64,000 nt of DNA from Sistotremastrum niveocremeum HHB9708. Taxonomy: Eukaryota > Basidiomycota > Agaricomycetes > Sistotremastrales > Sistotremastraceae. A program made the position numbers and the translations under genes. The notes below the pieces were generated by a model. The model did no database searches and was not told the origin of the DNA. It saw only the letters and a program-made list of their open reading frames with translations. Positions 8,702-63,127 of this stretch are shown here, piece after piece (positions within the stretch are counted from its first letter, which is position 1; each line of letters starts with the position of its first letter). The DNA lies in the NCBI GenBank assembly GCA_001630475.1, contig KV419397.1, forward strand, positions 1,061,758 through 1,125,757. The letters are read 5' to 3'.

Positions 8702-10444
8702 ATGCCCAAATTCACGCTGAACAGTCCGTCTCTGTTCAAGCCTAAATTTACTCAACACTCAACAATTTTACAGTTATCCAAGCCTTTTTTGACCTTCCTA
8801 CCCCTCCGCAAACAGTTCCTGACGAAATATCGCTCATCATAGTCATCGGTTTTGCGGGGGCCACTCCGGAAACGACAGTGCGACTCCCTCCAGCTCGTCT
8901 ACTGCCTACTTCCGATGGCACCCGATATGAAGCAGACTATGACAGAGAGTGCGGGCCACCACTGGAGCCCGCAGACCAGGTTGCGATCGTTATGTTTTGG
9001 ACGATAGACGGACAAGATTTTTATGAAGAGATGGTATATTTTGTTGCAGAACTGGTTGAGGAGGATGTGGGAGATTGTGAGCATCCTTTCCCCTCATGGA
9101 ACGTGAACTGGGATTGATTGGATCGAGGAGATGTCGACCTCATCTTCGAAAGCGAGACGAACGGTGCAATTCCGCCACTCATGCATGGACTCGGATTACA
9201 CAACGCAATAAGATCAGATTGGAGTCGCATCATGCTCAGAGTAGTTATGATGCCGTTCGAAGGTAGGATACTCCCTCCTGCAAGGACTTTGGCTGATCGC
9301 GCGATTGCTATAGAAGCGGATGATCTCACGGCGAAAATCAATTATAACCCGAACCCTCCGAATGACACACTGAGGCGATTGGGGACGTTCCAATTGGGAG
9401 AGGTACAGCAGCAGCCCGTACTTGTCAGGATCTTCTCTGCCGAACCTGTCACCGACCGGCATCGCAGAGTGGCGTTTAAAGACGTATGCTTTTACCTTCA
9501 CTCTTCGTGACCATTTCCGTTGATTGACCCACAACCGACAGAAAATTTCCACTCGAACAAGCACCTGGTTGAATATTGACCACCTGAATGTCTTGTCATA
9601 TGTGGGCTTCGCAATTGACCGACAAGTCCGGCTTTGTTACGGACTCACGGCGTCGGAACGGATGCCTTTGAGTAAATTTCTCGGTCAGGCCCGCACAATT
9701 CCTTTACCACTCAGCAGAGTACAACTTGTACGCCACCTCCCACTATTTCATGGAGATCTGAAAGCTTACTAGAAAGACAGGTTGAAGGCATCGCTCAGGG
9801 TTTGAAGCACCTCCATGATCACAACATCACACACGGCTCATTGCGAGAAGTGAGTTAACTCTTTATCTCTGTTACTGAATATGATTGATCTTATCTGCCT
9901 GCAGAACACTGTTCTGATTGACGAGTTTGGCATCCCGAAGTTATGTGATTACGACCTCGCCAGAGCTCTCCATCGCATCAGTGACACAGCTCACGGCCTT
10001 CAATGGACCAGATGGATGGCACCTGAGCTGCTTTACGATCTAAGAAGAAAGATGTGGAAAGTTGAACGTTCGGGAGAGCGAAATCCACTGAAGCGCCGAG
10101 TATTTGCTGTCTCAAAGGCCGGTGATATCTGGGCCCTCGGATGTATCGTATTCGTAAGTGATCCCAATGGTGACACTGTTCCCATACTCAGAGCTGAGCA
10201 ATTTCATTAGTTTATCTACTACGGGAAAAGGCCATATTATTCTATGAGGAACGCACAAGTGAGGGCCTCCTTAGAAAGCGGTGTCTTGCCCAGAGTTGAC
10301 GTGCCTGTGCGTTACCACGAAAGTATTGAGAGACTTATGGATATGTGCTGGAGTTTAAAGGTGTATCATCGACCTGATATCGACGAGGTTCTTGCCTGGG
10401 TCGAAGATGAACCCGACTCAGATGAGGAGTTGAGTGAGGAGTAG
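8702..10444 (+). CDS. PK1: pseudokinase with novel N-terminal domain, 468 aa
   Basis: Seven exons keep frame throughout: 8702-8723, 8774-9076, 9131-9483, 9542-9718, 9781-9849, 9905-10153, 10211-10444. A TGA in the genomic reading frame at 9115 falls inside intron 2. Residues 1 to about 220 form an unrecognised, probably beta-rich domain (MPKFTLNIIQAFF...). The kinase fold follows: LGTFQLGEV glycine-loop region, VLVRIF where VAIK is expected, DHLNVLSYVGF, LHDHNITHGS, CDYD at the DFG site, RWMAPE and GDIWALG. The HRD Asp is Ser, the catalytic-loop Lys is Arg and the beta-3 Lys is absent, so phosphotransfer is unlikely; a binding or scaffold role is inferred. It is flanked by CAPG genes and ends in an acidic tail (DEPDSDEELSEE). 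Confidence 0.8.
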
Positions 10445-10840
10445 CCGCGTCTATTACGCGTCAGCCGTGGGGCGTGCGCAGGGACGATTTTGTATGTGCC
10501 TTTGAGCTGTAGTTGTGTGAGTTGAACGTGTAACAGGCTAGTATTGATAGTAAGATGTATACGAGCGTCGTGAATGTACTAGGTAGTCCGAAAATTTCTC
10601 TCGCTGTTACAGTAATCGTTTGGATATATATACGAACACCAACTCGTGCGATGTCACAGATATTTATGCAAGAGATCGGCAGAATATCGCACATGAGTAC
10701 AGCGTCTCGACGAGTCATAGGTAAAATTCTGCAGAGTAGGAGTTGCTAGTGACTATTTACAAGGACGATTCCGGAACACGGACGTGAAGGAGAGCCAATG
10801 CCAAAGGCGTATCTGAACGGGCGGATTAAATTCTCCCACC
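10445..10840. other. Spacer between convergent PK1 and CAPG copy 2
   Basis: The two genes point toward each other, so this holds two 3' flanks. Nothing conserved with the 3' motif of PK2-PK4 was found apart from a weak ttttgtatgtgcc at about 10488. No gene seen. Confidence 0.4.
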
Positions 10841-11842
10841 TTAAGGAAGAGATCCAAAAGATAACAAGGATGAATCTTCTGCCCAAAACGGTTCCATATA
10901 GGACGAAGTCAAGGTGGGAATATAGAGTTGGACTTCTTGGCCGGCGAAGTCAAGGTCGGATACGGGCTGCATGATGGGAGGAAGATATAGCTGCACGGTA
11001 TGGCGCTTTGATTGACTCTCCGAAAGGAACTTCGCTCGTGTCTCGGGATTCTCCGCGTCCCAGAGATCTTTGATAATTTGTCCGACCGTACGAAGAGGAT
11101 ATACCTCCGTGCGTCGTTCACAGGATAGAGTAGAAGAGATTCTCGCCATTGGCGTGAACTGCTTCTGAAGTATGGGGGCCATTGCGGACTGATGATGATA
11201 AAGCCATACGCGGGGAGGGATACCCTCTTCGGAGACTTGTCGAAGAGACACTTCCCCTGGTGCTGAAGGGGGATAGTCGTATTCCCTGAGCGTAATCATA
11301 CCCGGAGCGCACGCCATGAAGATGCGCAGGATATCATGGATAGGAGTACGTCCAGATGTATAGTCCGAAAAGAATGACTGATTGAAGATGGCCTCGAGCT
11401 TTCTGAAAGCCGCTTTTCGAGAGATCTGTTGTCGGTAAATTTTGTAGAATATTGCTAGATCCCTGGGTAGGGAAAATATAACGAGCGAGTGCTCGTGACT
11501 GTCGTTGCCCGAGCTCTGGTCCAGACGCTCGATCGAGAAGAGGGCGTCCTTCGGGAGAGTGGCTGATCTCCTCCATCCGTATTGACCAACCAGACAGTCT
11601 ACGAGCGATAGGACGAATGGCGCAGCCCTATCCCAAGAAGGCTTTGCAAAAGCTGGGATAGAGCCAACTTTGCCAGCCCATTTCCGTGTATCGCTTTCGA
11701 AATAATACTGGCCTGAAAATGCTATCGATGCGGAAGGCCGAGGAGACCTGAGGGAGGAATGAGAGATGTGAAAACCAAAGTCCTAAGATACATACCGAGA
11801 GGTACTAGAGGTGCTGAAGCGTGGGCTGAATCGTGAAGACAT
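10841..11842 (-). CDS. CAPG-family orphan protein (copy 2), 317 aa
   Basis: ATG at 11842 opens a 47-bp exon (MSSRFSPRFSTSSTS). A 48-bp intron 11748-11795 (gtatgt...ccctcag) follows, then one long exon to a stop at 10841; frame is kept. Signature segments are HDILRIFMACAPG, EGIPPRVWLYHH and a helical tail, matching the other copies. This copy is longer than its relatives, with about 80 extra C-terminal residues containing VQLYLPP and VQLYIPT, a possible internal repeat. The N-terminus is Ser/Arg/Phe-rich and probably disordered. No catalytic motif is seen. Function unknown. Confidence 0.7.
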
Positions 11843-12578
11843 GGCAAGACCGCGGTGTGATGGCTTGTGAGATGGGAGAGATTGAGGTAGTGGGGAACCA
11901 ACGAGCCCAGATACAAAAATCAGGGCGGCCGTCGGAGGTCGTTGATAAGAACCGGGAGCCTGGTCTCTCCCACTGTCGCATCGCTTCCGGTCGATCGCAA
12001 ATTCCGTTGGGCCTCGAGTCTACAGATGGAAGGCTGATGATAAATTTGGTGGCTTTTGTCAAGTCGAGAATGCTGATAGGGAGAGAAAGGAGCGATGAGT
12101 GGGGAAGCTAATCCCAACCAAGGGCCATGTGCCTCAATTTCGGCCTCGTTAGAGATGATGACCCCTCTGATTGAATAGGTTTTATGGCGGAATGGATCAT
12201 CAGGTCAACATGAGGCATATCGTATGAACGTATCCGTATACTGAAGTGAAATGAATTACGTGGCGAGACGGATCTGTCAGAGCGGAAAAATGGGCGAGTG
12301 GGGTTGATATGGAGCTTGTCGAGTTTGGTTAATCGATGCATCGCGAGGACAAGATCGTGAAAGAAGACGCGGCGTCTGATGGTAGCGCGACAACGGAATT
12401 GTTGCGTGAGAGGGTGCAACTGAACCGGTGGCATGGCCCGGGGGCACGTCCGAGACTCGCGAATTGATTGATCAACTCCGATTCTTACAACACCCCTCAT
12501 CTTGCAACGTTTTCGCGCGTTCTGGACCTCGGTTTATCCCCACCTGTCTTTATCGAACGCCATACCATTTAGCGGCGA
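11843..12578. other. Spacer between CAPG copies 2 and 3
   Basis: Contains a 130-codon minus-strand frame (12108-12500) without homology to the surrounding families and without splice partners. The upstream region of copy 2 should lie here. I see no supported gene. Confidence 0.35.
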
Positions 12579-13020
12579 TCAAGAAAGGATCAGCGTGACG
12601 TCGCATGGTCCTGGTCGGCTGCTGACTGGAACTCGTAAGTCGAGAATAGAGATCCTGTCATCTTTACCAGCAGCGCACATAATACTGAAGCATAGAAATG
12701 GGTCGAGAACCAATCCCTCAGATGGGCAAAAAGCTCTGGCTGTCCGATAAACATTTTTTCTTCGGCAAGCGCTTCGGGTCGGATTGAAGACAAGACGCAT
12801 GTCCTGTGGAGATGAGGGTGACAATACATTCGTTATCCACGCGGATCACGGGAAGCGGAATTCCAGGTGTCATTTGGGACGGTGCCAGAACGGAGGGCAT
12901 TCGTAATGCGATACCGAAGTTTTCGAGGTAAGTCCTCGTGTTCTCATCGATAGGCGAGGCTGCAGATGACCCAATAGGCTGCGGCAGGGTTCGCAGAGGA
13001 AGATATATAAAGTGCTGCAT
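12579..13020 (-). pseudogene. CAPG-family copy 3, frameshifted
   Basis: The first frame, from ATG at 13020, carries family-like MQHFIYLPLRTL and later IRVDNECIVTLIS. After an A-rich run (six A on the minus strand, around 12750) the family signal continues in another frame: VYRTARAFCPSEG then LDPFLCFSIMCAAG, the counterpart of GPxQDLLYxLMxCAPG. The usual C-terminal PPRxW segment was not found. The copy is either a recent pseudogene with one frameshift at a homopolymer or carries an assembly error there. Confidence 0.5.
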
Positions 13021-13263
13021 TTACCGCGCCTTGATCTATCATCTCGCCCCTACGATGAGCTGTCAGCCCCATCACTCTTCGCATTTCTCTCGAGGATCTT
13101 ACCTTCATTGAACATCCTTGGTGCAGATCCTACGTTGCACAACTGTCCGTGACCTTGGTCTGTTTTTTCTTCAATCATTTGGGATGTATGTGGCTGATGA
13201 ATTGGACAGCGATTTATTATGCATGACATTATTTAGCGAGTGGCAAAGTCTTGAGGGAACGGC

Positions 13264-14183
13264 ATGCTTTTGAAGACGTTGCTGGCAACAGGTTCACTAT
13301 TCATATGCAGCATAACAGATGTCAGTCTTCCTGAAGATCTGGTGAGTATTATCAGTGCCGTCAGTAAATTATTCACTAGTACTCACGACGGGCTGTAGCT
13401 CAGGATCTCTAGTCTTTCGATGTAGTGCTCCTCGGTATTGGCCTGGGCCGGATACTGGTGAGTGGTCATCCTCCTACTGCTCGTGCACCGACTGTTCCAA
13501 TTAATCGAGTTCTCAGAATATTGTCGTCGTGGTCTGCCGAGCCGAGCCGAAACATATCGTAGTCTCGAAGATCATCGAGGGTGATACGTATGAAGGGTGC
13601 GAATCTCCCGTATGCCAAGCCAGTACCGAATTGACGGTTCATTATCTTCAGATACTCAAGAACCGCCGGCAATGTCAGGCTTTTCTATCTGGGTCACGAC
13701 CAACAAACTACAAGTAAGCTTCAACGTATAACTATTAGTAGTCGAGTATTGACGCACCTGAGAGTTCCGTAACGCCTCAGTCATCCCTTTTCCAGTCTCT
13801 CGAGTCTAGCTGCGTCCTTCAGCATATCCTCGCGGGCGCCAAATCCATTCTTCGCTGCGTCCTCTCTGTCCATCCTGAAATCGTACTTTTGCTGGATGAA
13901 CGGACGATAAAGGCGTTCATTTCCATCACGTCGAGCTGTGGTGAGTCTTTCATTTTAAGCCTCATCATTCATTCACTCATGATTCTGAGCCGTGGACGAC
14001 AGAGCGCGATGAAATCTTCAGAGCTTCAGTTTCCGCTGTAATCTCTAGACGAATGGTCTCACCTCGTGCGCTGTATAGATTAGGTATGTCCATGCATTAC
14101 GAAGTCTTCAAGTTGTTGACAGAGCGACAGTAGCGTTGCTTTCGTATCGCGCTATGTCCAGCCTCGACGCAAGCATCGGATGA
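13264..14183 (+). CDS. Orphan six-exon gene with signal-peptide-like start, 211 aa
   Basis: Exons 13264-13341, 13413-13457, 13517-13713, 13765-13940, 14003-14083 and 14125-14183 join with matching phases at all five junctions, and every intron has GT...AG ends. The first 20 residues (MLLKTLLATGSLFICS) look like a signal peptide or anchor. A second hydrophobic run (VVLLGIGLGRIL then NIVVVV) follows about residues 29-47 and could be a membrane span. The rest is helical and soluble-looking, with six or so cysteines (CESPVC, SSCVL, ILRCVL). I do not recognise it. The frame agreement over five introns is the main reason to believe it is real; the first intron is the least certain. Confidence 0.45.
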
Positions 14184-15770
14184 CCGGAAGATGCTTTCTC
14201 GGCATGGCTTCGGTCTCGGCTTCGGTCATCCAGTCCATCACTTTCGACACCGAGCTCTCAGTTGTGTCGGTAAGTCAGTTTGTTTGAATGAGCTTGATCA
14301 TGAACTGAAAGTCTCATATAGATATAGGAATGACTCGCAGCGGGCAACATTTATTTGTCCTGCCGCTGCTGGATATTTTAATTTTCCCCAGCCGTGAATC
14401 AATTTTGCGGGCCTGACCAAACCCGGGCCTCCATTGTTGATTTTCCCAAGCGGTCAATCAATCTTCTGAGCCTCAATAGGGCCTGATGGAGCCCTCAGAG
14501 TGATCTGTTCCGACGTGAGTCCGTAACAAAGCCGAATTTATTGCTCGGTCACGGTTGCGAACCCCACGTCCGAGAACAGATCTGCATGTTCCAACATCAG
14601 CCAGAGACTCGACACGCCCGATATTCTGTTTGTTCTTCTGCTCTTGGAAAAGTGATGGTGAGTCCTCTCGCACTTATATATATACAGGCTCCATGAATTC
14701 ACGCATTTTCCTAGTGTTCCGAAATGCTCAGTTGTAGTATTTTGGCGCTTGACATCCGTGCACGTGTAGTGTAGTGGATAATTTCCAGGGTGGGATTTAT
14801 TCTCGGTGTCTATACCCAGCACAGCCGACGACTTCGGGACGACGCAGATGATGCAGAGTTATCCGTCGTCGGACGCGTTCACTTTGTGTCATCTATAGAG
14901 TCTTGAGCATCGATGTGCTATTGTTTTTGTTTTGTTCTTTTTTGGCTTCGATACGTTGCATTGAGTTGATATCTCGGAGGAGGCGTCTCGGTTCATGGCA
15001 TTCGTACTGCCGACTCGACCGTTCCTTCTAGATTTTCAAAGTGAGATGTGGGTCATTCTGCCGTCAATCTCAGCTGGACTAGACTTGGTGTATTCCCTTG
15101 AATGAACGAAATTCGTTCTATGGCAATCCATCAATTCTGGTGGAGTATTCAGCGAGACGCGGGTATCCAAGAATAGACTAGACATGGGTATGTGCTCTCT
15201 TTTTTTAGAAAAAAATCTTTCATAACATCCCTTCTAGACTCGAGAACCTTAGCTCCTCGGTTCGCCAGTGCATTCGGCGTGGTTATAACACAGATCACTT
15301 ATGTGTGGGTCGACATGGATGATCGTGCAAATTACGACTCCTGCACCCAAACACACATAGGTCCTTGGATAATTGCGCCGATTCCTGCAAAGATCTCTCA
15401 AATATCTCATAGTTACCTATCGCTGGACTGCTGGCTGACGGAGGCACTGTCCATCGATGTGATAACGTGGAATTTGAGCTTGACGTGTTCAACGTGTTTA
15501 TTTCCATATTTCGCTAGGGCGATCGATTTCATGTCATAGAGAAATGTGATGCATACTTCATGTTCATCTTTGCCTGAGATCTTTCGCCTAGCAACGTATG
15601 ATGAATCTGTGGTTCTTGCCTTCTAGAGTAATTGAACGCTGATTATGTACATGTAATATCAAAAACACTCCATCGCAAGAACTCGATATTGGATTTGAAC
15701 GTCTTTGGGATTAGTACGTCATGCTCTTTAACATCAAACGCCTTCTGATTTTTCTCTTTGATATTTGTCA
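14184..15770. other. Stretch with no resolved gene
   Basis: Holds scattered splice-like signals (for example a donor near 15190 and an acceptor near 15237) and a 115-codon plus-strand frame at 15192-15539, without a consistent model. The sequence ttcggtctcggcttcggtc near 14210 echoes a TTCGG-rich tract near 8443. Nothing recognised. Confidence 0.35.
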
Positions 15771-15772
15771 GA

Positions 15773-16120
15773 GAGCTAGATTTCCTACTGGATTGTTGCG
15801 GGGATCAAACTTCGGAGTTCTCGGGCAATCGGGTAAGTCGGCCTTCTAACTTATTTATTTATTATGTTGAGCGTATGATCTCAAGACTCTCCTATATTAT
15901 TGCTTGACCCCGATAACACGTATCTGGTATCCCGTACACACGAAAGAACGGTCTACGCGGCACAGAAACTTTTCGAATGTGAGGTCATCTTCTCAACAAA
16001 CTTCAAAGAGCTAACTCGCTGATCCAGCCACATGACTGGCAGATCGTTGTTAGACTTATACAGATGTTTTTCGTCGAGAACTCACTGTCTCGGGGCGAGC
16101 GCATGGGATGTCAGCCTTGA
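15773..16120 (+). CDS. Tentative orphan gene fragment
   Basis: Three exon-like segments keep frame: one around 15773-15834 (ELDFLLDCCGDQ), one around 15888-15977 and one ending at a TGA at 16118-16120 (HDWQIVVRLIQMFF). They are separated by GT...AG introns of about 50 bp. The start was not found and no family is recognised. A polyadenylation-like AATAAA at 16627 lies well downstream and may belong to a longer version that includes the frame at 16108-16449. Confidence 0.22.
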
Positions 16121-16825
16121 GGTTATGTCACGAGTTGATGTCCTATACGCTGCTTGTTGCCTCTGAACAGTCCAGCTCTGACGGCCGTCACAGCGTTTTC
16201 TGGATGTTAGAATCATGTGTCCATGGACTCGAGGCTCAGGTTAGTTTTCTGTCTAGAACCCTCGATCCGATTCGAGTACTGACGGACATTTCACTCTCAT
16301 CGTCACAGAGCAGTCTCTTCGATTTTGCCAGAGTCGGATATTCGCGCTTCATATCAGCCGGCTTGGCTGATTGTCAACCATTAGCGAGCGGTGGTGGTTG
16401 GAAAATCCGATACCTCGCATGCCAATGGTCAACGTTAAGCCGAGGTTAATTTTTTTCCCCTTACATGTACATATGCGAATTGCGAGTCCCTATCGCGCGC
16501 CAATGAGGTAAAAACTGCTCTATGAGTCGTCAGAGTATATAAACGAGGGCAGCTAGGATTGAATGATGACAGTCTTGTGACCTTTCTTGTTGTAATGCCA
16601 TCGTACTGTACTTGGGTTCATGTGATAATAAAACTTGAATTTCGACATCCGCTGTTGGCGTATATACGTTCAGAAATTTCATGTCAACGCTTTCGCTTTT
16701 CAACAATCGTGTTCTGGATGTCAGATCGTACGAGATAGAGAACCGGAGTTATGAGCCATGAAGCCGACTCCTGAAGAAGGTCTAGGTAAATATGACCAAA
16801 CAGCTCGGCACCGGCACCAGACTCA

Positions 16826-23602: not shown

Positions 23603-25400
23603 ATGGAATCCGTTAAAATCTACGGTAAGCAACTTCAACTCGACAGATAACGTTTTCTAACGTCTACTTTATCAGTTCTTTCGCTTTCTACTGCTATAAA
23701 AGACGCTCCATCTATCATACCGAATGGCCGCTTCGAAATAGTGGTGGAATGGAATTGCGGTGTTCATACCCTCAAACTCAGCACTAGTACCCAATTTATC
23801 AGACACTATGATCGCGGTATCGACCAAGCTTCCGTATATCGAGGTGTAGAAGGAGAAGGAAGACTTAATAGGCCCTCTGTCGTACATGCTAAGGTTATTG
23901 ACTTGGAGTCGAGGGAGACGATGTTCAGTGGGCAACATGCCGTCGATGCTTTCTCCGCCTTCAAAAACACCTCTTGTACGTTGCTTGATATATACTCATC
24001 TATTCTGTGCACTCAAATCGTATTCGTATTGACAGGGGAGCTGATTAAGTTGTACGCCACTGTGAAGGATGGAATATCGACCGATGTTAGGCAGGGGTCT
24101 GCGGTGCTGGATTTGAAGATCAAGGTTGGGCGGGTTCACCATATGATAAACTTGAACATAGTGTCTGCGAGTTAGTGTTCCACCCCACTCCTCCTTCGAT
24201 GATTGAGCTGACGGCAGCTTGAAGACGACTTTGTCCAGGCGCCAGATCTCACCACTCGTATCGAGCGGTTCCCATTCAACCAGGATGTGTGGGTAATGAT
24301 AGATGGTCCGCACGAGTGGACAGAACGTAGGCGGTTGGAGGATGGAATGGTAGAAGTGAGGTCATTTGACTGCAATCGAGAGATTGCAGACATCATAGAA
24401 AACGGAAGTTCGGTCAGTGGGGGTGGCTATCGGAAGCCCGAGATACTCATTTTCGCACTAGGAGATCAACAGGGTCATCGGAAAGTGGAGACGAACGCTA
24501 CACGCAAACGTAGTCACGCCAATCGGATATTCGCTGCATGATTGCATCAGCATAGTCTACCCATTGCTCAGACGCGGACAGGAGAACGTGGACATACTCT
24601 CGTATATCAGGGAATTTGGAGCGACCACACTGCAAAGGGAGAGAATGGTACGCTCTAACCGACTTTTTACCTCATAAGCGTGCTGATCAGCCGTCGAACG
24701 AAGATCCGTGATGTCGCTGAAGGGCTTAATTTCTTGCATGCTATGGGAATAGTGCATGGTAACATGAGAGGGGTACGTACCTTCACCTTGAATCCTCGGC
24801 TTCTCATCCTTAATTATCGCAAGGCAAATATCCTCATTGCGGGTGATGGTCGGGCTGTAGTGACCGGATATGGGCTGAACGATATTCTCCGTCATACATC
24901 CGATGCACAAGTGGGAATGTCAGATTTGCGCTGGAATAGCCCTGAGACTGTTCGAACGAGTCCTGTGAGAGCTGTGCTTTCTGGTCTTATCCGACGAGCT
25001 AACGATTTGGATGCTAGGGTGACATCAGGGGTCTGGCAACAAAGAAAAGCGACATATGGGGCTTCGGATGTACCGTTTACGTGAGAACATGCATCGCCGC
25101 ACAGAATGATGAGACTTACGTGTTTCGCAGGAGATATACTCGCTCAAGCTTCCGTACAGCGTGTTGAGGAGCGAAGTCAAAATTGAAGCTTGCATCATCG
25201 GCGGGATCAAGCCTTGGTATGAAGGAGATATCAATGCTTATGGCAAGATCTTGCAAGGTTTCAGCGAGGAGATGCAAGAACTAGTCAAGCGATGCTGTCG
25301 ATATAACAAAGAAAGGCGGCCAACGGCAGAAATGATCGCGCGGGACTTGGAAGCCATGGTTGCTCGAAATGAGGGGGATGAACCCGTGGAGGCTGCGTGA
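23603..25400 (+). CDS. PK2: pseudokinase with novel N-terminal domain, 448 aa
   Basis: Nine exons keep frame: 23603-23624, 23676-23975, 24036-24160, 24218-24509, 24556-24647, 24704-24772, 24824-24964, 25045-25080, 25131-25400. The 22-bp first exon (MESVKIY) ends in phase 1 as in its paralogues. The N-terminal domain alternates hydrophobic strands (FEIVVEWNCG, VVHAKVIDL, AVLDLKIKVG). In the kinase half: EILIFAL at the beta-3 site with no Lys, NFLHAMGIVHGNMRG with HRD Asp changed to Asn and Lys to Arg, TGYG instead of DFG, RWNSPE, SDIWGFG and a normal C-lobe end with RRPTAEM. Catalysis is not expected. The 3' flank carries the shared GTATTCGTG motif. Confidence 0.8.
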
Positions 25401-25958
25401 TGAGCTTATGTATGAAAATACACGGCGAAGGATTCGAATGCTGGATACTCCATGATGCAAGATACGATCGGTTCGAGACTCAGGATCAAAGCCCTTGTAA
25501 TGAGCCCTTGTCTCAATGTTGTTTTGCTTTGTTGATAGTGTACAAAAATATTCCGGCGTTGTATTCGTGAGAAAATGTAGCTCTAGAAAATGTAAGTTGG
25601 TACAAACACAGAACAATGCGTGCCGCCAAATCAACCCTGCACGAATTTTGGCAATTTCTGTACCCGGAAAATATTAATATGGTGATTGAAAGTGGCTTTC
25701 TACGTGCGGCGTTCTAAAATTGACCGGAATATCATGATAAGCTTCGCTTCGAGCTTACGTGAGGATCGAAGACATCGGAACTCCATGAGAATTGCACAAA
25801 ACAACTACAGCGAAGAGGACCTTCAGTAGGTTCTTCGTTTCAGTTAAGTGAATCAATAGTGTGTCCGGAGCGCTGCTTTGGCGGCCGTACATCGAAAAGC
25901 TTTACGACAATATACAGTACAAGTCAAATCGTGGAATCAATTCTAATCATGTCACAAA
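25401..25958. other. Shared 3' spacer of PK2 and the HNH-family gene
   Basis: The genes converge here. Apart from the GTATTCGTGAGAAAAT motif at 25561 it shows no recognisable feature; a decayed extension of either gene is possible. Confidence 0.35.
25559..25576 (+). promoter_or_regulatory. 3' flank motif GTATTCGTGnGAAAAT after PK2
   Basis: The word gtattcgtgagaaaat, about 160 bp past the PK2 stop, recurs with one or two changes after PK3 (32211) and PK4 (38493). Its position suggests a shared transcript-end element or simply inherited flank. Confidence 0.45.
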
Positions 25959-27507
25959 TCACGAACTGCCGACCAGCCAGAAGTCCAATGCAGGTATGAG
26001 ATCCGGATCAGTAAAATGTGGTATCAAATCCTCCCTGACAGTCCAATCCCAGATCATTTTGTTGCCATGAACGGTGGGTTCAACGTCGGATTCGACGTCA
26101 GAGTCAACGTCAGAGTCAACCTGGTCTGCCTGAGATCGTTCCCGTTGAGTTCCAGTCCACATGCCTGGAGGGAAGTAAAGTGCCGGTGAATGTTCTGTGA
26201 CATTGCGCGCTACAGGTTCAAACAGATCAAGGTTCAGATCTCTTGGGACGTCTCCCAGTTCCTCACAATATCCCAGAAGTTGTTGTGCCACGTAGGCTTC
26301 AAGGACGGTCTTTCCGGGCTCTCGGGCCCAGCAGAGATGGTCGCTCGGAGCTTCACAATTCTGAATATTGAACGCGAGCTTACTGGCGATGATGTATTCT
26401 CGATGTGCTTGAGGATCATGGAGGCCCCAACGAATGAGAGCTTGATGGAAGTGGGCACGAAGAAGGGCATCGGATGGTCGGGAGTTGGTTTCCTGCCAAC
26501 TGTCGATAAGAAGTTTGCTATCCGCCGGTAAATGCCATTGATCACAGGGTAAAAATTGAACAATGCGATAGTCATCCTGACGGGCTGTCGTCACTCGAGG
26601 GTCGCTATTGACAAATACGTACTCACATCAACATCGATAGAATACCAGTGGTGGTTGAAGGCTTCGGATGCCATATACGCACACACGAATGCATTGGAAG
26701 GGGACATCATGGCTTGTGTGAGCGATTCATGGGATTCAGCAAGGCCCCCGAAGATTTCTTGAACATCTGAATTCGACCACTGAAAATGTTGTGTTAAATG
26801 CAGTAAGTCATTTACCTGAAAACCGATGTCATACCTCGGATGGGGCTACGAAAGGAAATATTTTGGCGCAAACTATACTGGAGAACACTCCCAATTCCTT
26901 TGGATAGATCATGCACTCCATTCCGGTGATGAGACACTTCTTGTCACGGACAGCAACTTTATGAAAGAGTTCGTCATCCTGGGAGGACGAAGGTCTTAGA
27001 TGAATACTAAGTTGTCGTATCGTCGACTCACTGTCCTAGTCGATTTACGATTATCATTGACAAGACAGCGGTATCTGTAAAAAGTCGACTTGGGTACGGG
27101 TGATAAAATATATTGAGCTGGGGGAGAATAATCATGAGTTACTGAATGACCAGGGGTCTCAATGCTGTTTGAATACCTTGATCGACCAAGTGGAATGATC
27201 CCACTGGAAAGGGCGAGTCGGTTTGAGGTAGAACGGGTCTTCCTTCGCTACGAAAATGGATGAACCAGTTTTCGGATTGGGGCAAATGGAAAAGGATTGC
27301 GAGCCAGTTATAAACATTGATGATGGTATAATACCCGCGCTGCTGCAGACCAGCTATGATGGATCCCTCTCTGTTGTATATCAGAATATTCCTCCGCGCA
27401 TAATATCGATCTACACTCGGATCGAAATCCGAATAATTTTCTTCTTCGCTCAAATCAGAGCCATCATGGAGCCGAGTCGTATAGGCATCGTCACGCGTCG
27501 TAGTCAT
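25959..27507 (-). CDS. HNH-family protein with eroded nuclease residues
   Basis: Reads leftward from ATG at 27507 through five exons that join in frame; introns lie around 27113-27171, 26980-27032, 26784-26837 and 26577-26623. Order of features: an N-terminal domain (MTTTRDDAYTTRLHD), a spacer ending KSTFYRYRC, an HNH-like core with CLITGMEC and CAKIFPF, then SPSNAF and FNHHWYSID, and a C-terminal PSDALLRAHFHQAL segment. PSDALLR plus CxxTG is the mark of a large Agaricomycete family related to HNH_2 nucleases. The usual AHIFP His is Lys here and the later LH pair is replaced, so cutting activity is doubtful. Near the end is an Asp/Ser/Val repeat (DSDVDSDVESDVE). The frame is intact. Confidence 0.75.
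26082..26125 (-). repeat. In-frame short repeat coding DSDV units
   Basis: Near-identical copies of gtcagagtcaac/gacgtcagagtc encode an acidic tandem stretch in the C-terminal part of the HNH-family gene. Likely to vary in copy number between strains. Confidence 0.5.
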
Positions 27508-27806: not shown

Positions 27807-27860
27807 ATGGACCAAAATATTACTATGCTGGGGTTTGACGCGTTGCGATGGAAAAGTTCT
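27807..27860 (+). pseudogene. PK-family activation-segment fragment
   Basis: A short piece reads LGFDALRWKSSP and is followed at once by gtgaggg. PK2 has LRWNSPETVRTSP followed by gtgagag at the equivalent place, so coding similarity and intron donor position both match. No complete kinase surrounds it. A longer frame runs on to 28301 but resembles nothing. Probably a relic of a further PK copy. Confidence 0.4.
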
Positions 27861-30298: not shown

Positions 30299-32077
30299 AT
30301 GGCTGTAGCAAAAAGCGCTAAATTCGCAATCCACAGTCAGTGCACCCCTCATTCCTCCTAAATTCGACTTAATAACATATGTTCTAGTCCTCTATCTGTC
30401 TTATCCGACCGCGGATGGCGGTCCTGAACTAACCAGCGACTATTCTGTTACTTTGAAATGGAGTGATGGGGGTTTTATCAGTAACCATCATCGCTACACT
30501 GTCAAATTCCTTCCCTTGTTGGCCGATCCTCAAGCACGAGTCAGCATCTATCGCACAATGATGGTCAAAGCTGATGTTTCGAGTGATATTACGATGGAGT
30601 TGATTGTTCAAGACGTCGCGGACGAACGAAAGCGGTGGACTTGGTCGAAGAGCTTACAGGGAGCTGCATTGCTGGGGGCGAATCGCCGTGAGTTGTTGTA
30701 TCCTATGCAAAAGGCTACAATTAGACGGATTGCAGAACATTTTGATGAAGTTGTGCCTGCCACGCCGCCGTTCGGTGGGCGACACGAAGAAATTGCGCCA
30801 GTTATAACCTTCCGATGCTCAGTTGAGAGGGTTCATCCTCGAAACCCATACAGGATTCCGTTGAGTGAAGGCGAGTTTGATGTTTGATGGGAGCGAATAC
30901 GGCGTCTCATGATATTAGTAGACGTCATTGAGCCCGTGCGGATGCCGAATGAGATATTCCAGCGCTATTGGCTCGCGCGAACCTCTGACTATGTCATCAA
31001 CGAAGGAATCCACGGCGCTCTGAACGTCCTGCGCATGACTCTCAAAGAAGGCACCGATCAGCCGATGGAGAATGTGCTTGAAGCGAGTGGGGTAGGTTCG
31101 AGTATCGCAGCAGACCCTCGTGATGATTGACGATCTCGTTCCAGGAGCGCTTTTTGAGGTCCTTACGCAGGGCGAGAAACTTGAGACATGAGAACATCAT
31201 GCCGCTATTGGGATACACTTGTGATGAAGTTTCCTTCTCTCTTGTTATCCGCGACGACGGGGAACAATTCGTTACCTTGGATAATCTGCCAATGTGGAGA
31301 GTCCCGTGGGGTATAAAAATGGGATTCGTGAGCCGATATTGACTGAACCAGATCGCAAACACTGAGCGTTTACCATGACAGATTATTGGGGTCGCGAAGG
31401 CTGTAGAGTTTCTTCATTTCGAGGGAATTGTTCACGGATGTATACGCCCGGTATTTCCTCTTCTGTTGTACCTGTCGAGCTGAAGTTGATGACTCTTGAA
31501 ATTAGGGTAATGTTCTTGTCGGCCTTGATAATCGCCCTTTGCTCTTTGACATGGGCGCTCTCGGGGAGCTGCAATACACGTCCGATTCGAGGCTCATAGA
31601 TCAGCACAACCGCTGGATGAGTCCCCAGATCGTGCAAGTCCGTCAAGGGAACGGATACCACTGGATGAGGACGCAGAAATCTGATGATATCTGGGCGCTT
31701 GCGTGCCTTATCACGGTAAGGAAATCTCGAAATTAATCTGGACGTAATCAGATTCATCGATAACTGGGCAGATGATTTTCTCGAATCACATACCATATCA
31801 TGCGCAGACGTCCGGCAAGGTTCATAAAGCGATGCTGAGTGGAATGCGTCCCTATGAGTTGGATCAGCCTGAGGTGTCTCAATTTGCGAGTGTATTGGGA
31901 ACGTTCTCCACCATCTTTCCTGAGCTTTGGGGAACTTGTCTAGGGTGCTGGGGCTTTGATCCTCGTGGAAGACCCACCGCGATGGATGTCGCGAAAGAAA
32001 CAGTGGCTGCAGCTCACATGCGTGAACTGCTCATGAGATTGTTTCCAGAGGAGGCCAGGGCAGGCACTCTTGAGTAG
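30299..32077 (+). CDS. PK3: pseudokinase with novel N-terminal domain, 475 aa
   Basis: Seven exons keep frame: 30299-30335, 30388-30864, 30919-31091, 31145-31300, 31382-31450, 31506-31715, 31772-32077. An apparent stop at 30885 lies in intron 2, so the N-domain and kinase are one protein. N-domain: AIHILYLSYP, YSVTLKWSDG, YTVKFLPLL, ITMELIVQDV, VITFRCSVERV. Kinase part: ALNVLRMT with Asn in place of the beta-3 Lys, RNLRHENIMPLLGYT, GIVHGC with HRD Asp changed to Cys, GNVLV, LFDMG (Asp kept), RWMSPQ and DDIWALA. A pseudokinase by residue loss. The intron before the 69-bp exon uses gtcccg, a weak but workable donor. The 3' flank resembles that of PK4. Confidence 0.8.
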
Positions 32078-35000
32078 CCACGACTACGGGGGATTTCAAT
32101 TGTACGACAAAGCGGATTGGATGGATGCAGAACAGTGGAGTGTAGACATAAAACGGTAGGTCTGTATCGTAGCGATGTGTTGGCAATGTTTGTGTTTGTG
32201 TACCTTTTTTGTATTCGTGGGAAAATTGCGGTCAATTTACATTTTTTGATCCGCTGACGTAACTCTGCTAAGCCTCTTTGTCTTGCAAACGAATGCTGCC
32301 CTTCTACTTCCTGTTTTTCTGCGCCAATGATATTGCGTACGGTGCTCTCAAACTCTGAAAGTCATGCATTCTGGATAGTACGGGCTCTGGAATCGCTGTT
32401 CGGCATCTGAATCTGGGCGAAAAGCGCAAAACATGACTCATCCTGGTTCCCAACACGTCACCAGAGCACTCATTATATCTCGCTGAGTGGATATATCAGT
32501 ATTAGCTGCCATTATGCTCATCATCTCATCGTAATTTTTCTACAGTTTTTCATTGTGTGTCCACGTCGATTTTGAAACCAGCAAGGGTATGTCAGATCGC
32601 CAATTGGCCTTGGACCACATTGAAGGCCCACAATAACCAGATATGCATCGTCATGTCTGCCACATATTACGTTCGTGGAATATCATTCGAGGCGCAATCG
32701 CATCTGTTCGTGCCAACTTTCGTTCCCACCGGCGGCCTGTACTAGCAAAGTCATGGTTTCTTTGGAGCTCGGGGGGACAGTCCCGAGTCATTTCGACTCG
32801 GAAAGGATTCACCTTCTTCACGAACATACTTGCAACATAGAAGGTATCAATGTTGAGGATAGGCTGATCCCTGTGAGTCCTGATTCTTTCATGTCGAAGC
32901 TTTGCATCAACCTAATCATGCTACTCTCAGACGCCACGAAATAGCATGCCACAGCTACCTCAAATCTGCTGCCTAGGTCCTTCTTCCACGATGTTGGCCA
33001 TGAGACTCGTTCCAGGCATTGCGTCACTGCCGAATCTTCACCTCGCAATCTGGACTGTCGCACTTTCGTTAAACGTTCGGACTAGCTGCGTGGTATGGTT
33101 AGAGTGAGCTTGCGGGCTTTGCGATGGTCTACCGATGCTCGCGGACTGCAATCCGAAGTGTCACAATCAGCGAGTACCGGATACCTCGGAAGAGGTCGGG
33201 CTGATTCGATACTACAGAAGATGCCCTTCGCATCACCTGGCATCAAGGAAGTACGACTTGGATGTGCCTCTCATGGTGCTACTTCCGCTGCGTTGATCCC
33301 CAAACTGTACGCGTTCCGCTTCGTCAACCCTCGCTTATTGAGACGGCGATCAGACCGCTATGCCCTGGCCTATGAATTGGAAGCCAAAGACCGCTCATTT
33401 AGTCGTGAACGCGATACAACAATCTATGTTGTGATACTCCAACTCTTTCAAGACGAGTCGTGCTTGAAAAACCACGAGAGTATTCTGACCTTGCTCGAGA
33501 CGAATACACGGAATATGCGAAGTTCTGATCTGAATCATCCGGTTCAAAAGGTGTCGGAGCTTTATATTAATCGCTTCGTGCTGCAATGGTAGTGCTCCGG
33601 GTGCTCAGCATGCTAAAATCAATGCTGCTTCGCCGTACTACATGGATCTGCTTCCGTCGTTCTTCTCAAGCTATGCCAATGACTCCCCTTCGAGGGTCCA
33701 TAATTCTCGCCCATCTATGACATGTCTGGTGTTACGCAGCTTTTTCTATCTCCTCCGTCCTATATCATGGAATGGTGACGATCCGGACTCGCGAACGTGG
33801 TTTCTCCTTCAGCTGATTCTCAGGGTTTCTGGGGACTCTTTATGTCTCTTGTACCGGCGCTGTATCAATAGAATCACTTAGTGCACGGAAGTCCTCAGAT
33901 ATACCGGGAAACTGATCGTGATGGATGTTCATTAATGCCTGAGCCTGAGCTGGCTACCCCTGTTAGTTTGGGCGCTTGTTCTCCTGGCGACTCATGAGAC
34001 CTCTCGATTCTTCCTTCTTTTCCTGGTATACTCTTGATCACATTTGGCGCATGTAACGCCATCTCAGGAGTTTCTGTTTCGCTTCAGTCTCGTCAAATTC
34101 TTGGATGCTTCGTAGGTGAAGGCAGGCATTCATCCGATTATGTAAGCAACATTTTCGGGCAGTTTCTTCCAACTCTTCAAATCAATTGCTTCGATCCGAT
34201 AACTCCTACCGACGCTACGGGATCTTCTCCTGTGATATAATGACTCGAAGATGCAACTACTTCCATATCACAAAATGTGATGTACCAGTAAACAGAGCTT
34301 TTCGTACGATGGACATCCAGAGCCGTCAAGTAATAATAGCATCCCTTCTCAAATGATATTGAAAGCATGGAAGAGCTCTTGTAGCTGTGGCCTTTATATC
34401 GCGATCAACTTTCCACTCATGCATGAAGACGAGCGCGGAAGCAAGAAACTGTGTTGGGCGTTACAGTGAGGATATCAACCTGGGGCCTAAATTGTATATC
34501 TATTTTTATGGATGGGAAATCGCAACTTTGAAGTATAATATGAGCTATCAGTTTATGAGGAAAGTGAAATGAACCATACATGTACAACATACGAATTACT
34601 ATACACTGCTCTGACACGGACGGTTCGTGCCGAAAACTCCGAGTTGACTTTCTTGTTTCTCCTTTCCCCCGACGACGACGAGGCCCATACATCGATAGAC
34701 TCTTCTATAAGTCATCCTACGGTTATATGGCACATTCATCTCCCTGGTCACACAGTTCAGCAATATTCTGGAGGCGATATCTGGATATAAACGACTGAAC
34801 TCGAGAAAAACCTAAGCCACCGAAAGTGCCACGTCGTAGATGGACGCGTTCTGATCTTCCCATCATCAACGCAGACTGGAAGGGCGTCACAGAGTAGAGT
34901 ACCCGATCCACATCGGATTGTGGGCGCGTGAAGGATCGAAGGACGAAGCTCAGGATGGGAACGGACGCATAGTCGAGTGGGAGTTGAAAGGTCGCGCACT

Positions 35001-36532
35001 GCTGTGCTGCAGTGAGACGATTGAGAGAAACTCTGCGCGCTCCTGAGCTGATATACGCGCTGCTTTGCGGTGATCGATGAACAGGGTGAGAGAATGGTTA
35101 CTCTCTCCGAGCTGGCCGGGAGAGCACCGAATACGTAGGGTAAGTTCCCCATGAATTCTGAAGCCATTGAGAATGCTTATGAGGACACAGATATCTGGTC
35201 ACATTGCGTATGCTCGGTCGTGGACCAGCACGAGAGGATAAACATAACCTTGCACCGTGTTGGACGAAGAATATATGCTCGACCGCGGGAGAGGGCCGCC
35301 TCGAAGGTACCGGTTCGCTCTTCCTGCTCTTATTCTATGATGATGATGAATTTATGAGCACAGATATGCCGCGATGACATACTATACATCCCATATGACA
35401 AAGCTTCAGGTCCGATAAATCGAGCAGCGCTGGGAGTGCAGCCATGGTTATTGGCGTGTCGGATCAATCTCTCCTTCAATTTGCATGCATTTAAGGAGGA
35501 TTCAGCACTATAATGAACGCGGAGGTTATCTAGACGACTATAGATTGAAGCCTTTAAGTCGAACAGTCTGAAACGTCGGTGCTCACCGGTCTTCTCAACA
35601 TTCCAGGGCCGGCGGGCAGACTCCCGGACGAATCCATACTCCAAACCTGTCATGATTATCCCAAACGGCCCAAATGCGCTGCTTAATCGCCAATTCCACG
35701 ATGCTCACGATAATAAAGCTCACATATCATTTCAGGCTGGCTCCATCTATCGGAAAGCCTCCTTTCGGTCTCCTCGGGGTTGTGAAGAAGGTAGTTGTGC
35801 GTCATAAATACCACGGTGCCTTCTATGGACTGATCAACATTGTAGATCTAGGAGCCTGTCATTCAGTCAACTTACCAGTACATCGTTAATGATGACGGAT
35901 GAAGCGCCATCCTCACTCCTCAGTCCTGATGGCGTCCTACGATCGCGAGATGGCAACGGCTCTACGCGATGGTTGAAGAACATGGCGAAGATCTCCGGAT
36001 CAAAGAATACAATTCAATGAATTGCTGGGATGGACATCGCTGAAGATCAAGACGTCCCTCAACGTCCCTCAAGTAAATCTTTGTGAAGTTTTTGGCCTCC
36101 AACCACTGACCGTATCTGCAGGTCATCTGGCAGCTATCAGGTGAGCGCAAGCCAGATACGACCTGGTACTATGATTGACGAATATTTCGACCAGGTGCTA
36201 AAGCTGCGGTCTTCGGGGCTCTCTCCGCCGACGCGTCGTTGACTCGGGAAAATTTTGAAGAAAAAGGGTCCACCAGTCGCGTGGTTCAACGCATGTCTAA
36301 TGATGCAGGGATGCTCTCGCATTCGACATGTCGCTTTCTCGAGTTTCAGGTCTTCAGCACAACCACACCTGGCCCAATTTTTCTTAGGATTTTTTTATCG
36401 ACGAGTGAGCGAGAAAATCACTAGTTTGTTTTCTTCGGCAAGTGATCGGACTTTCTTCCACCACTATCCATACCCGAGTGAGCCGATGTGCCCCGGGTTT
36501 CTTACCACTCACAACTGAACTTCGTGCACGAC
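32078..36532. other. 4.4-kb stretch between PK3 and PK4 without an intact gene
   Basis: After the PK3 3' flank come unrelated short frames. The largest (33095-33592, plus) is helical and basic (LLRRRSDRYALAYELE) and not recognised. At 35151-35220 a plus-strand piece reads YEDTDIWSHC followed by a gtatgc donor, like the SDIWGFG/GDVWSFA alpha-F segment of the PK genes, so at least one kinase relic may lie here. No convincing complete gene was found. Confidence 0.35.
32205..32227 (+). promoter_or_regulatory. 3' flank motif TTTTTTGTATTCGTGGGAAAATT after PK3
   Basis: About 130 bp past the PK3 stop. The T-run plus gtattcgtggga is also found after PK4, followed in both by a gctgacgtaa word and a gcctc word. 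Confidence 0.5.
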
Positions 36533-38332
36533 ATGGAACATCCAAGGCCCTTCAAGATCTACAGTTCGTACACTTTTTCTAATGTCTGAAGATCATATTT
36601 AACATATTTTCTAGTCCTAGACGTCTTTTATCCCGAGAAAACCGAAGAAACAGGCATTCCAGGCTTAACCAGCCAGTACCGCCTTCAAGCGTACTGGTGC
36701 AAGGACGGGCAATGGATGGGCGATATCAACTTCACTTTCGAATTCCTGACTACAGCCGTGGACCGCGTACACCGTGCCGATCTTCATCGCGTGCTACAAA
36801 CCAAGTTCTTGCGTTGCGAAACTTTCAAGCTCGCCATCAGTCTTTGCGATGTGAGGGATCAGGAGAAGCAGTGGGGCTGGGAATGGGAAGCAGATGTTGA
36901 TGCGATGTTTCGGTGCTGTAAATGTAAGTTGTGCTATACCACTGTGTGCGACATATGAACTGACTTGTCCAGTTACCTTCCCCATAACGTTGTATCCCTT
37001 GGATTTTGCCTCTGAAAGTAGCAAAGCTCCGCGTCCGCCAGTATATCTTAGGATGCAGTTCGAGTGGGAGGATGACCGTGATCGAGACCTTCTCGGTCTA
37101 CACGAGCGTCAGTGGAAGTTTGATTGGATTGGTTGTATCATGTGGCTCACGATGTGGCACAGCGGCTCTTGACTTAGATGGAGATAGGACTCAGCAATAC
37201 TCGCTCGATCGGAGATTTCGCGCTTGGGACAAAGGGGATGGGACGTGCCGGCAAGGATTCCTCTTCTTGGACGAGAGGGATTACATGCACCAGCCATCAA
37301 AAGTTAAAGGAGCACATGTCGTGCGCATCACCCCCAAAATCGTCAACTATACCTTCGCGGATGTATGGCATCGGGTCGACTTTGAAGAGCAAAGGGTGGG
37401 TCGTCTACTGATGACAGCCTGATACATTATTGATTTGACATTTGCTAGTTCGAACTTCTGAAGAAAATAAGGGTTGCGAGAAGAGTGCGACATAAACACG
37501 TCTTACGGCATATGGGGTTTTGCATGGATGGAGCCGGACTTTCGATCCTTATTCTCCAGGTTCACAAGAGAGCACCTGACATGGAGAGCTATTTGAAAAC
37601 GTTCCCTGGACCATCTATCAAGAAGAAATTGGTAAATGAACCGATGGCTGCGAACTCAATGAGTTTCTCAACTTTCTGAACAGGTTGTTGGACTCGCGAG
37701 TGGACTTGCATATTTGCATTTGTATGGTTTTCGTCCGATGGTTTTACGTGCGGTATGTCGATCTACATTCTTCGTTTACGTCAGTTGAGCTGGTTTGTGG
37801 TTCATCCAGGAAAATGTCTTCATCCGCGGAGACGATCAAGCCATGCTATGTGACGGCGGACCGGTAAATTACATTCGAGAGATGTCGGGGAATGTGGCGA
37901 TCCAGGATGTTGATCTGCGTTGGATAAGCCCGGAGTTGAGGCATATAGGGCATATCGGGATCGTTGGGAGTCCCCCTCCGACCTTATATCACGACGGCGA
38001 CGTGTGGTCGTTTGCGTGTCTCATTGCGGTACAGTTGGTTTGGTTATACCTCGGATAATACGGTACTGACTGTAACACAGAGGACGTTTTCGAACAGAAA
38101 GCCGTACAATGAGATGTCTGATCAGGAGATGCAAGTACTCAGATCTCCTCGCCGCGACCCGAAGAGGAAACCATATGATACTGATTTTGAGGGGCAATCG
38201 TGCCCGGCATGGGTTCAGGCGTTCCCGCGTCTCGTGAGAATGTGCGAGGCTTGCTGGAGCTTGGAACAATGGACCAGGCCTAAGTCGGCTTGGATTGCGG
38301 ACAACATCGCCGCTGCGATTCCACTGTTTTGA
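36533..38332 (+). CDS. PK4: pseudokinase with novel N-terminal domain, 479 aa
   Basis: Eight exons keep frame: 36533-36563, 36615-36923, 36973-37131, 37178-37395, 37449-37631, 37684-37752, 37810-38028, 38081-38332. The first exon (MEHPRPFKIY) ends in phase 1. N-domain: ILDVFYPEK, YRLQAYWCKDGQW, INFTFEFL, YLRMQFEWED. Kinase part: HVVRIT at beta-3, LKKIRVARRVRHKHVLRHMGF, ASGLAYLH, then RPMVLRAEN where HRDxKxxN is expected, LCDGG for DFG, RWISPE and GDVWSFA. This is the most eroded catalytic loop of the four: the HRD His-Arg-Asp is gone, with only the Asn kept. The intron at 37132 has an unusual donor (gttgta), the least sure junction. Confidence 0.78.
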
Positions 38333-62585: not shown

Positions 62586-62652
62586 TCTCTTGATAACTAG
62601 CTTGTGAGTCAATGAGGAGACGCCTTTCAGAAAGTGGGACCGGGACGAGGTT

Positions 62653-62669: not shown

Positions 62670-62691
62670 TGCTCTTTCTGGCATCGCGCGT

Positions 62692-63055: not shown

Positions 63056-63127
63056 GCCCACTGGCACATCTCGGTCTCAGTTTTGAATGGCATCTCCTCG
63101 TCGCCTCACAGATTAATTATTGACACA

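What the first reader, a model, noticed from the sequence alone, without database searches (positions are those of the whole stretch)
8702..38332. Four maintained pseudokinases with an undescribed N-terminal domain
PK1 (8702), PK2 (23603), PK3 (30299) and PK4 (36533) each yield an uninterrupted 448-479-residue protein once hand-placed introns are removed, yet all lack the HRD Asp (HGS, HGN, HGC, PMV), have Arg for the catalytic-loop Lys and lack the beta-3 Lys. APE-like and alpha-F (DIW) motifs and C-lobe ends remain. Different substitutions in each copy argue for an old non-catalytic family kept for binding or signalling, and not for four recent accidents. The fused N-terminal domain (about 220 residues, strand-rich) matches nothing I know. 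This is the best candidate for a new system in the window.
Basis: partly seen in the sequence, partly recalled or inferred. Interest (0 to 1): 0.88.

Follow-up and report, generated by a model that had tools for sequence, protein, structure and literature searches.

The report
Four C2-like fungal pseudokinase genes
This stretch of probable fungal DNA carries four old, intact sister genes for kinase-like proteins that have lost the key catalytic residue, each with a front part that may be a membrane-binding C2-type domain, so they probably act as switches or docking platforms and not as enzymes.

Summary
PK1-PK4 can be modelled as spliced genes of 454, 450, 468 and 476 aa. Every one scores above Pfam's cut-offs for a kinase domain. 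All four have lost the HRD Asp (HGS, HGN, HGC, PMV); no beta-3 Lys is recognisable. In 40 shuffles per locus no forced gene model scored as high. Exon layout is shared, including a 69-nt catalytic-loop exon. Four-fold sites are saturated between copies (23 of 116 identical) while the kinase parts remain clearly alike, so the family is old and its fold was kept.

The 'undescribed N-terminal domain' is only partly supported. It is about 150 residues, not 220. No Pfam family matches it. AlphaFold models of the PK3 and PK2 versions are all-beta, low confidence, and give mainly C2 domains in Foldseek (9 and 8 of the top 10). By sequence only PK3 and PK4 share it significantly.

Best reading: divergent C2-like/TKL pseudokinases acting as membrane-docked scaffolds or switches. 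TKL pseudokinases are already reported as predominant in plants and fungi, and C2 domains as N-terminal parts of basidiomycete NLRs, so this is a new variant of a known kind. Mechanism is inferred; the species is unknown.

The parts
8702..10444 (+). PK1 gene: exons 8702-8723, 8774-9076, 9131-9262, 9314-9483, 9542-9727, 9781-9849, 9905-10153, 10211-10444; 454 aa; HGS, DYD, APE, DIW
   Evidence: model; PF07714 E 7.2e-25; SYK/Eph kinases best in PDB; shuffle control
23603..25400 (+). PK2 gene: exons 23603-23624, 23676-23975, 24036-24170, 24246-24412, 24462-24647, 24704-24772, 24824-24964, 25018-25080, 25131-25400; 450 aa; HGN, GYG, SPE, DIW. The third intron is ambiguous (alternative 24161-24217 gives 456 aa)
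   Evidence: PF00069 E 9.8e-25; B-Raf best in PDB
30299..32077 (+). PK3 gene: exons 30299-30335, 30388-30687, 30736-30864, 30919-31091, 31145-31327, 31382-31450, 31506-31715, 31772-32077; 468 aa; HGC, DMG, SPQ, DIW
   Evidence: PF00069 E 9e-15; RIPK1 best in PDB, 1.1e-10
36533..38332 (+). PK4 gene: exons 36533-36563, 36615-36923, 36973-37107, 37163-37395, 37449-37631, 37684-37752, 37810-38028, 38081-38332; 476 aa; PMV at HRD, DGG, SPE, DVW
   Evidence: PF07714 E 9e-13; RIPK1 best in PDB, 1.6e-06
30299..30864 (+). PK3 N-terminal domain (exons 1-3, about 155 aa), predicted all-beta, C2-like
   Evidence: eight strands of five or more residues and a short one, mean pLDDT 54.5, pTM 0.58; residues 106-147 and 160-175 under 50; Foldseek, 9 of top 10 C2, E 2.0e-3 to 6.5e-3
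36533..37107 (+). PK4 N-terminal domain (exons 1-3, about 158 aa), homologous to that of PK3
   Evidence: PK3-PK4 z 11.8, 36 of 123 identical
23603..24170 (+). PK2 N-terminal domain (exons 1-3), predicted all-beta, C2-like; not significantly like PK3/PK4 by sequence
   Evidence: mean pLDDT 45.1, pTM 0.46; Foldseek, 8 of top 10 C2-containing, best E 4.0e-4
8702..9262 (+). PK1 N-terminal domain (exons 1-3); assigned by exon layout only, fold not modelled
   Evidence: no sequence significance; exon lengths 22, 303, 132
25559..25573 (+). 3' flank element TTGTATTCGTGAGAA, 159 nt after the PK2 stop
32209..32223 (+). 3' flank element TTGTATTCGTGGGAA, 132 nt after the PK3 stop
38491..38505 (+). 3' flank element TTGTATTCGTGGGAA, 159 nt after the PK4 stop
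14436..14741 (-). decayed relic of a PK1-type copy, in-frame stops in the matched stretch; matched by PK1 only
   Evidence: tblastn 33% over 106 aa, E 7.3e-07 in the window; 77% over 77 nt

Best explanation
PK1-PK4 are an old, dispersed tandem family of tyrosine-kinase-like (TKL) pseudokinases, each fused to a divergent N-terminal beta domain that is probably C2-like. Most likely mechanism: the C2-like part docks the protein on a membrane phospholipid or a partner (inferred), and the kinase fold, unable to transfer phosphate because the HRD Asp is gone (shown by sequence) and no beta-3 Lys is recognisable (register uncertain), acts as a scaffold or conformational switch that binds an active kinase of the same expanded group or its substrate (inferred). 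The copies have diverged strongly, so each probably serves a different partner (inferred).
For: Kinase domain in 4 of 4. HRD Asp lost in 4 of 4, seen against SYK, B-Raf and RIPK1 in the PDB alignments. Core structural motifs kept: APE-like, D[IV]W, RP near the end, catalytic-loop Asn. Frames open in four genes where composition alone would give 22-25 stops each (introns were placed to keep frames open, which the shuffles allow for). No shuffle of 40 per locus reached the real model score. Old divergence with protein constraint: four-fold sites 23 of 116 identical, kinase z 14-28 in 6 of 6 pairs (both on models). A decayed copy nearby suggests that unneeded copies do rot here. C2-like fold for PK3 and PK2 N-domains. 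C2 domains occur as N-terminal effector domains of basidiomycete NLRs and are lipid-binding (PMC4986451, passages). A 15-nt 3' element shared by PK2-4.
Against: Both fold models are low confidence (mean pLDDT 54.5 and 45.1; the tool warns that such models can give meaningless matches), made from the same three rows and from readings that keep short intron stretches and lack exon 1. The top-10 Foldseek E-values are 4e-4 to 6.5e-3, with query-normalised TM 0.32-0.47; for multidomain chains such as SHIP1 the listing does not show which domain aligned. No C2 match by sequence. N-domain similarity is not significant in 5 of 6 pairs, and profile comparison of PK3+PK4 with PK2 and PK1 fails. The kinase N-lobe front is not covered by the Pfam matches. 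No orthologue, no RNA data, no genome, so splicing, expression and present-day selection are untested; codon-position identity mostly does not exceed codon shuffles. Several splice choices were made by comparing copies, so their agreement is not independent proof. Membrane binding, partners and lack of activity are inferred.
Confidence: 0.5

Rival explanations
1. Left-over copies of a large expansion of active TKL-type kinases that lost activity and are now drifting; intact frames only because loss is fairly recent in each.
For: FslK kinases expand in Agaricomycetes, and the authors suggest that some truncated members reflect degradation after duplication (PMC3937382, sections 4 part 1 and 9). 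A decayed relic lies at 14436-14741. The N-domains diverge strongly. Different residue at the lost Asp in each copy. Codon-position identity mostly within codon shuffles.
Against: Four of four frames are open over 450-476 codons. HRD Asp and alpha-C Glu are gone and beta-3 Lys is not recognisable while fold motifs remain, which fits long non-catalytic life better than four separate recent losses. A conserved 3' element in three copies.
Confidence: 0.22
2. Self/non-self or immune role: the C2-like part is a membrane-acting effector restrained by the pseudokinase, as the four-helix bundle is in MLKL, or the proteins are decoys guarded by NLRs, as ZED1 is in plants.
For: PK3 and PK4 are closest in PDB sequences to RIPK1. 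Some fungal HELL domains are part of proteins with kinase/pseudokinase domains (PMC12881547, passage). C2 is an N-terminal domain of basidiomycete NLRs (PMC4986451, passage). Clustered, strongly diverged copies. ZED1: PMC6634424, search listing only.
Against: No NLR gene was recognised by Pfam among the 10 neighbour proteins that I scanned, which are not all that lie here. The modelled N-domains are not helical bundles, and the most hydrophobic 19-residue stretch of each whole protein averages only 1.1-1.7. RIPK1 similarity is general TKL similarity. No polymorphism data.
Confidence: 0.15
3. Unorthodox but active kinases that use other residues.
For: DFG Asp kept in 3 of 4 and catalytic-loop Asn in 4 of 4, so Mg-nucleotide binding is not excluded in PK1, PK3 and PK4. 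PK1 keeps a glycine-loop remnant.
Against: HRD Asp absent in all four; no beta-3 Lys recognised; the alpha-C Glu place holds R in PK1, V in PK2, R or S in PK3 and K in PK4 in the PDB alignments; no glycine loop recognised in PK2-PK4 (by eye).
Confidence: 0.06

Closest known systems
Fungal TKL kinases and pseudokinases (TKL expansion of Laccaria bicolor, PMC2838846; TKL pseudokinases in plants and fungi, PMC10211241)
   Same: Kinase domain matched by PF07714/PF00069; best PDB matches SYK, B-Raf, RIPK1; catalytic residues lost; several copies
   Different: N-terminal C2-like domain; the passages that I saw of either paper do not describe this architecture
FslK, fungi-specific lineage related to tyrosine kinases (PMC3937382)
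   Same: Expanded in Agaricomycetes; Pro in the G-x-x-P place in PK1-PK3 (GVLP, GIKP, GMRP; by eye)
   Different: Most FslK members keep catalytic residues and only 16 of 241 have extra domains; phylogeny not tested here; PK4 lacks the G-x-x-P pattern
C2 domains (NEDD4, dysferlin C2A, CAR4, SHIP1 C2, cPLA2)
   Same: Beta-sandwich in the models; top Foldseek matches
   Different: No sequence match; calcium-binding aspartates not evident by eye; low-confidence models
MLKL and fungal HELL-kinase proteins (PMC12881547, PMC10211241)
   Same: N-terminal domain with possible membrane action joined to a TKL-type pseudokinase
   Different: N-domain is beta in the models, not a four-helix bundle; no evidence of killing
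Pm4 of wheat, kinase fused to C2 and a multitransmembrane region (PMC10260397, passage)
   Same: Kinase plus C2 in one protein
   Different: Plant resistance gene with a further transmembrane region

Membership tests
Protein kinase superfamily, TK/TKL-like | Pfam kinase profile above gathering score | tested here: met
   4 of 4; matches start at profile positions 41-57, so the N-lobe front is not covered
Pseudokinase | HRD catalytic Asp absent | tested here: met
   S, N, C, V in the four (alignments)
Pseudokinase | beta-3 Lys absent | tested here: inconclusive
   no Lys recognised; by eye Arg in 4 of 4, but HMMER puts Glu there in PK1 against SYK; the shown PDB alignments of PK2-PK4 begin after it
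Pseudokinase | DFG Asp absent | tested here: not met
   absent in 1 of 4 (PK2); kept in PK1, PK3, PK4. Not required for the class
C2 domain | Sequence match to a C2 profile | tested here: not met
   none at E up to 10 for four N-domains, though HMMER's filters drop most weak matches, nor in PDB by profile
C2 domain | Eight-strand C2 beta-sandwich fold | tested here: inconclusive
   models of PK3 and PK2 give mainly C2 hits but confidence is low; PK1 and PK4 not modelled
C2 domain | Phospholipid or calcium binding | not testable with these tools
   needs assay
FunK1 (PF17667, number recalled) | Match to the fungal kinase profile | tested here: not met
   not among the families listed for any of the four at E up to 10
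FslK | Conserved catalytic residues | tested here: not met
   HRD Asp lost in 4 of 4; the paper says most members keep them (PMC3937382, section 9)
FslK | Position in the FslK clade of a kinase tree | not testable with these tools
   no fungal reference sequences available
MLKL-like | N-terminal four-helix bundle | tested here: not met
   models of PK3 and PK2 are all-beta with one short helix (low confidence)

The most novel reading that the evidence does not exclude
A family of fungal C2-pseudokinases that works as a membrane-acting switch in self/non-self recognition or cell death: the pseudokinase restrains a C2-type membrane domain until a partner kinase or receptor releases it, with copies diversified to recognise different partners and three of them tied together by a shared 3' element.
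Probability: 0.08. Interest if true: 0.75.

Novelty: new variant of a known kind. Interest (0 to 1): 0.42.

Why it matters
TKL pseudokinases are reported as predominant in plants and fungi, and the role of the TKL pseudokinase expansion as unclear (PMC10211241, passage). A C2-like domain on such proteins gives a concrete, testable guess: they dock on membranes or partners. It would also link two separate observations, fungal TKL expansion and C2 domains on basidiomycete NLRs. If the fold is wrong, the N-domain would be an unassigned beta domain and still worth naming.

Tried and rejected
Own-genome search: none held. First hand-placed models had broken frames in PK1, PK2 and PK3 and were dropped; an unforced gene finder fused or split the genes. 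Viral contigs scan with the PK2: one pattern match, no relative. No scan of genome contigs was made, since that collection holds bacteria and archaea only. Pfam and PDB profile searches with the N-domains gave nothing usable. hhalign of PK3+PK4 against PK2 and PK1 N-domains: probability 1.0% and 0.2%. A six-row alignment of N-domain fragments was poor and not used. Foldseek against viral structures gave no coherent family. NCBIfam, given PK1 and PK4 only, listed general kinase models below cut-off for PK1 and nothing for PK4. Codon-position identity exceeded all 100 codon shuffles in 3 of 18 values only, so it does not itself prove selection; I use only the saturation of four-fold sites. FunK1 membership rejected (not listed). 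Models rejected where the other copies argue otherwise: PK1 without intron 3; PK2 with two extra introns inside exon 4, a different intron 4 acceptor and no intron 6; PK3 without intron 2 and with an intron inside exon 3; PK4 intron 7; these are comparative choices, not independent ones. The 1e-10 figure printed for shared phases is not used, because phases guided some choices. Paper searches; two searches returned none; two searches returned only PMC4986451; for the others I saw listings of up to 20 papers. PMC10197012 was looked at in passages and adds nothing beyond PMC12881547. Absence from print is claimed for these searches of open-licence papers only.
Full report
What is there. The window looks like nuclear DNA of a filamentous basidiomycete: short introns, a WD40/HIR1-type gene, a gene with HAT repeats and an RRM, and repeated genes that look F-box-like to me by eye. 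The assignment to Agaricomycetes is my inference, since no genome or fungal database was at hand. I rebuilt the four genes with a small splice-aware gene finder trained on the window, forced it from the stated ATG to the stated stop, and refined it by comparing copies. The final models are 454, 450, 468 and 476 aa with one stop each. On 40 dinucleotide shuffles of each locus, no forced model reached the real score or length (0 of 40 in each of four loci; 8-13 of 40 gave no model). The codon table used there had been trained with these loci included. With the loci left out the chosen frame still scores best, 23-25 against -14 to 2 in the other forward frames, though one reverse frame reaches 9-19.

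Gene structure. Exon lengths are 22/22/37/31, 303/300/300/309, 132/135/129/135, 170/167/173/233, 186/186/183/183 and 69/69/69/69 for exons 1-6 of PK1/2/3/4. Before comparison, the forced models already gave a first exon ending in phase 1 in 4 of 4, a 300-309-nt second exon in 3 of 4, a 183-186-nt exon in 3 of 4 and the 69-nt exon in 3 of 4. The remaining agreement was partly used to choose splice sites (listed under Tried and rejected) and is not independent.

Kinase part. Pfam finds a kinase domain in 4 of 4. By sequence the closest solved structures are SYK and Eph receptors for PK1, B-Raf and Raf-1 for PK2, and RIPK1 for PK3 and PK4: TK/TKL-type folds. HRD reads HGS, HGN, HGC and PMV. The catalytic-loop Lys is Arg in all four, which tyrosine kinases tolerate (PMC3937382, figure legend). 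DFG reads DYD, GYG, DMG and DGG. The catalytic-loop Asn is kept in all four. APE-like and D[IV]W motifs are kept. The front of the N-lobe is not covered by the Pfam matches. By eye an Arg fits the beta-3 Lys place in each copy, but in PK1 the HMMER alignment with SYK puts a Glu there and also shows a glycine-loop remnant; no copy shows a Lys. Searches used the models; there PK2 and PK4 differ from the final ones by 6 and 4 residues in length.

Age and constraint. Kinase parts are alike in 6 of 6 pairs (z 14-28 against 300 shuffles). At A, G, P, T and V residues conserved in a pair, the third base agrees in 23 of 116 cases summed over six pairs, about what chance gives. Synonymous change is therefore saturated and the duplications are old. 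Formal dN/dS cannot be had from such distances. Position-wise codon identity exceeds all 100 codon shuffles in only 3 of 18 values, so I do not use it. A relic of a PK1-like copy, with stops, lies at 14436-14741 on the minus strand.

N-terminal domain. Exons 1-3 code for about 150 residues. Only PK3 and PK4 are significantly alike there (z 11.8, 36 of 123 identical; the other five pairs z -0.2 to 1.3; on exon 2 alone PK1-PK3 reaches z 2.5). Profile comparison with PK2 and PK1 also fails. There is no Pfam match up to E 10 except one chance-level hit, and no usable PDB sequence match (best E 0.41). I had noted a C2-like fold as a guess before any fold search. AlphaFold of a contiguous reading of PK3 (three-row alignment) gave an all-beta model, mean pLDDT 54.5, pTM 0.58, with its last two strands below or near 50; its ten best Foldseek matches hold nine C2 domains (six so named in their titles, three CAR4 entries known to me as C2) and one peroxidase, E 2.0e-3 to 6.5e-3, none below 0.001. 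PK2 as first sequence gave a weaker model, mean pLDDT 45.1, pTM 0.46, and again mostly C2-containing chains: 8 of the top 10, two of these by my own knowledge, the two others from a ciliary complex; best E 4.0e-4, six matches at E 0.001 or less. The two alignments hold the same three sequences, so the models are not independent. The viral library gave no coherent answer. I take C2-like as the likely fold, not as proven. PK1 and PK4 were not modelled.

Flanks. TTGTATTCGTG[AG]GAA occurs without mismatch 159, 132 and 159 nt after the stops of PK2, PK3 and PK4; with up to 2 mismatches the window holds 4 sites against 0.31 expected. PK1 lacks it. It contains a GTGRGAA core that resembles CSL transcription-factor sites (recalled; one search was a listing only). 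Its role, UTR signal or promoter of the next gene, is open.

How it may work. Most likely a C2-like docking module plus a non-catalytic TKL fold that binds partners or switches shape. Shown: kinase fold by profile, loss of the HRD Asp, open frames, old divergence. Inferred: C2 fold, membrane or partner docking, scaffold or switch role, different partners for different copies. MLKL is a well understood precedent for a membrane domain controlled by a pseudokinase (PMC10211241, passages). C2 domains serve as N-terminal domains of basidiomycete NLRs (PMC4986451, passages), and some fungal HELL domains are joined to kinase or pseudokinase domains (PMC12881547, passages). These are analogies, not membership.

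Novelty. TKL pseudokinases in fungi, a TKL expansion in Laccaria bicolor and an FslK expansion in Agaricomycetes are known (PMC10211241 passage; PMC2838846 passages; PMC3937382 sections 4 part 1 and 9). I found no description of a C2-pseudokinase architecture in my searches, which cover open-licence papers only and of which I saw listings and the passages named. New variant of a known kind; interest moderate.

Noticed in passing
25559-25573, 32209-32223, 38491-38505 (+): A 15-nt element TTGTATTCGTG[AG]GAA lies 132-159 nt downstream of the stops of PK2, PK3 and PK4 and not of PK1; 4 sites with up to 2 mismatches in the window against 0.31 expected.
   Followed up: partly
4654-5214 (-), 10841-11842 (-), 46286-47025 (-), 53622-54393 (+), 55158-56015 (+): A second clustered family of five genes with a PGPLQDLLYSLMICAPG-like motif; tblastn cross-matches 2e-11 to 5e-4; the three members scanned have no Pfam match at E up to 0.1.
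   Followed up: partly
14436-14741 (-): Decayed relic of a PK1-type kinase gene with in-frame stops.
   Followed up: partly
57914-63996: Cluster of repeated genes, F-box-like by eye, on both strands, DNA 68-83% identical between copies; the one protein scanned has no Pfam match at E up to 0.1.
   Followed up: no
3667-3695: Near-perfect 29-nt palindrome.
   Followed up: no
25959-27507 (-): Gene of 415 or 440 aa, by model, facing PK2 tail to tail, no Pfam match at E up to 0.1.
   Followed up: no
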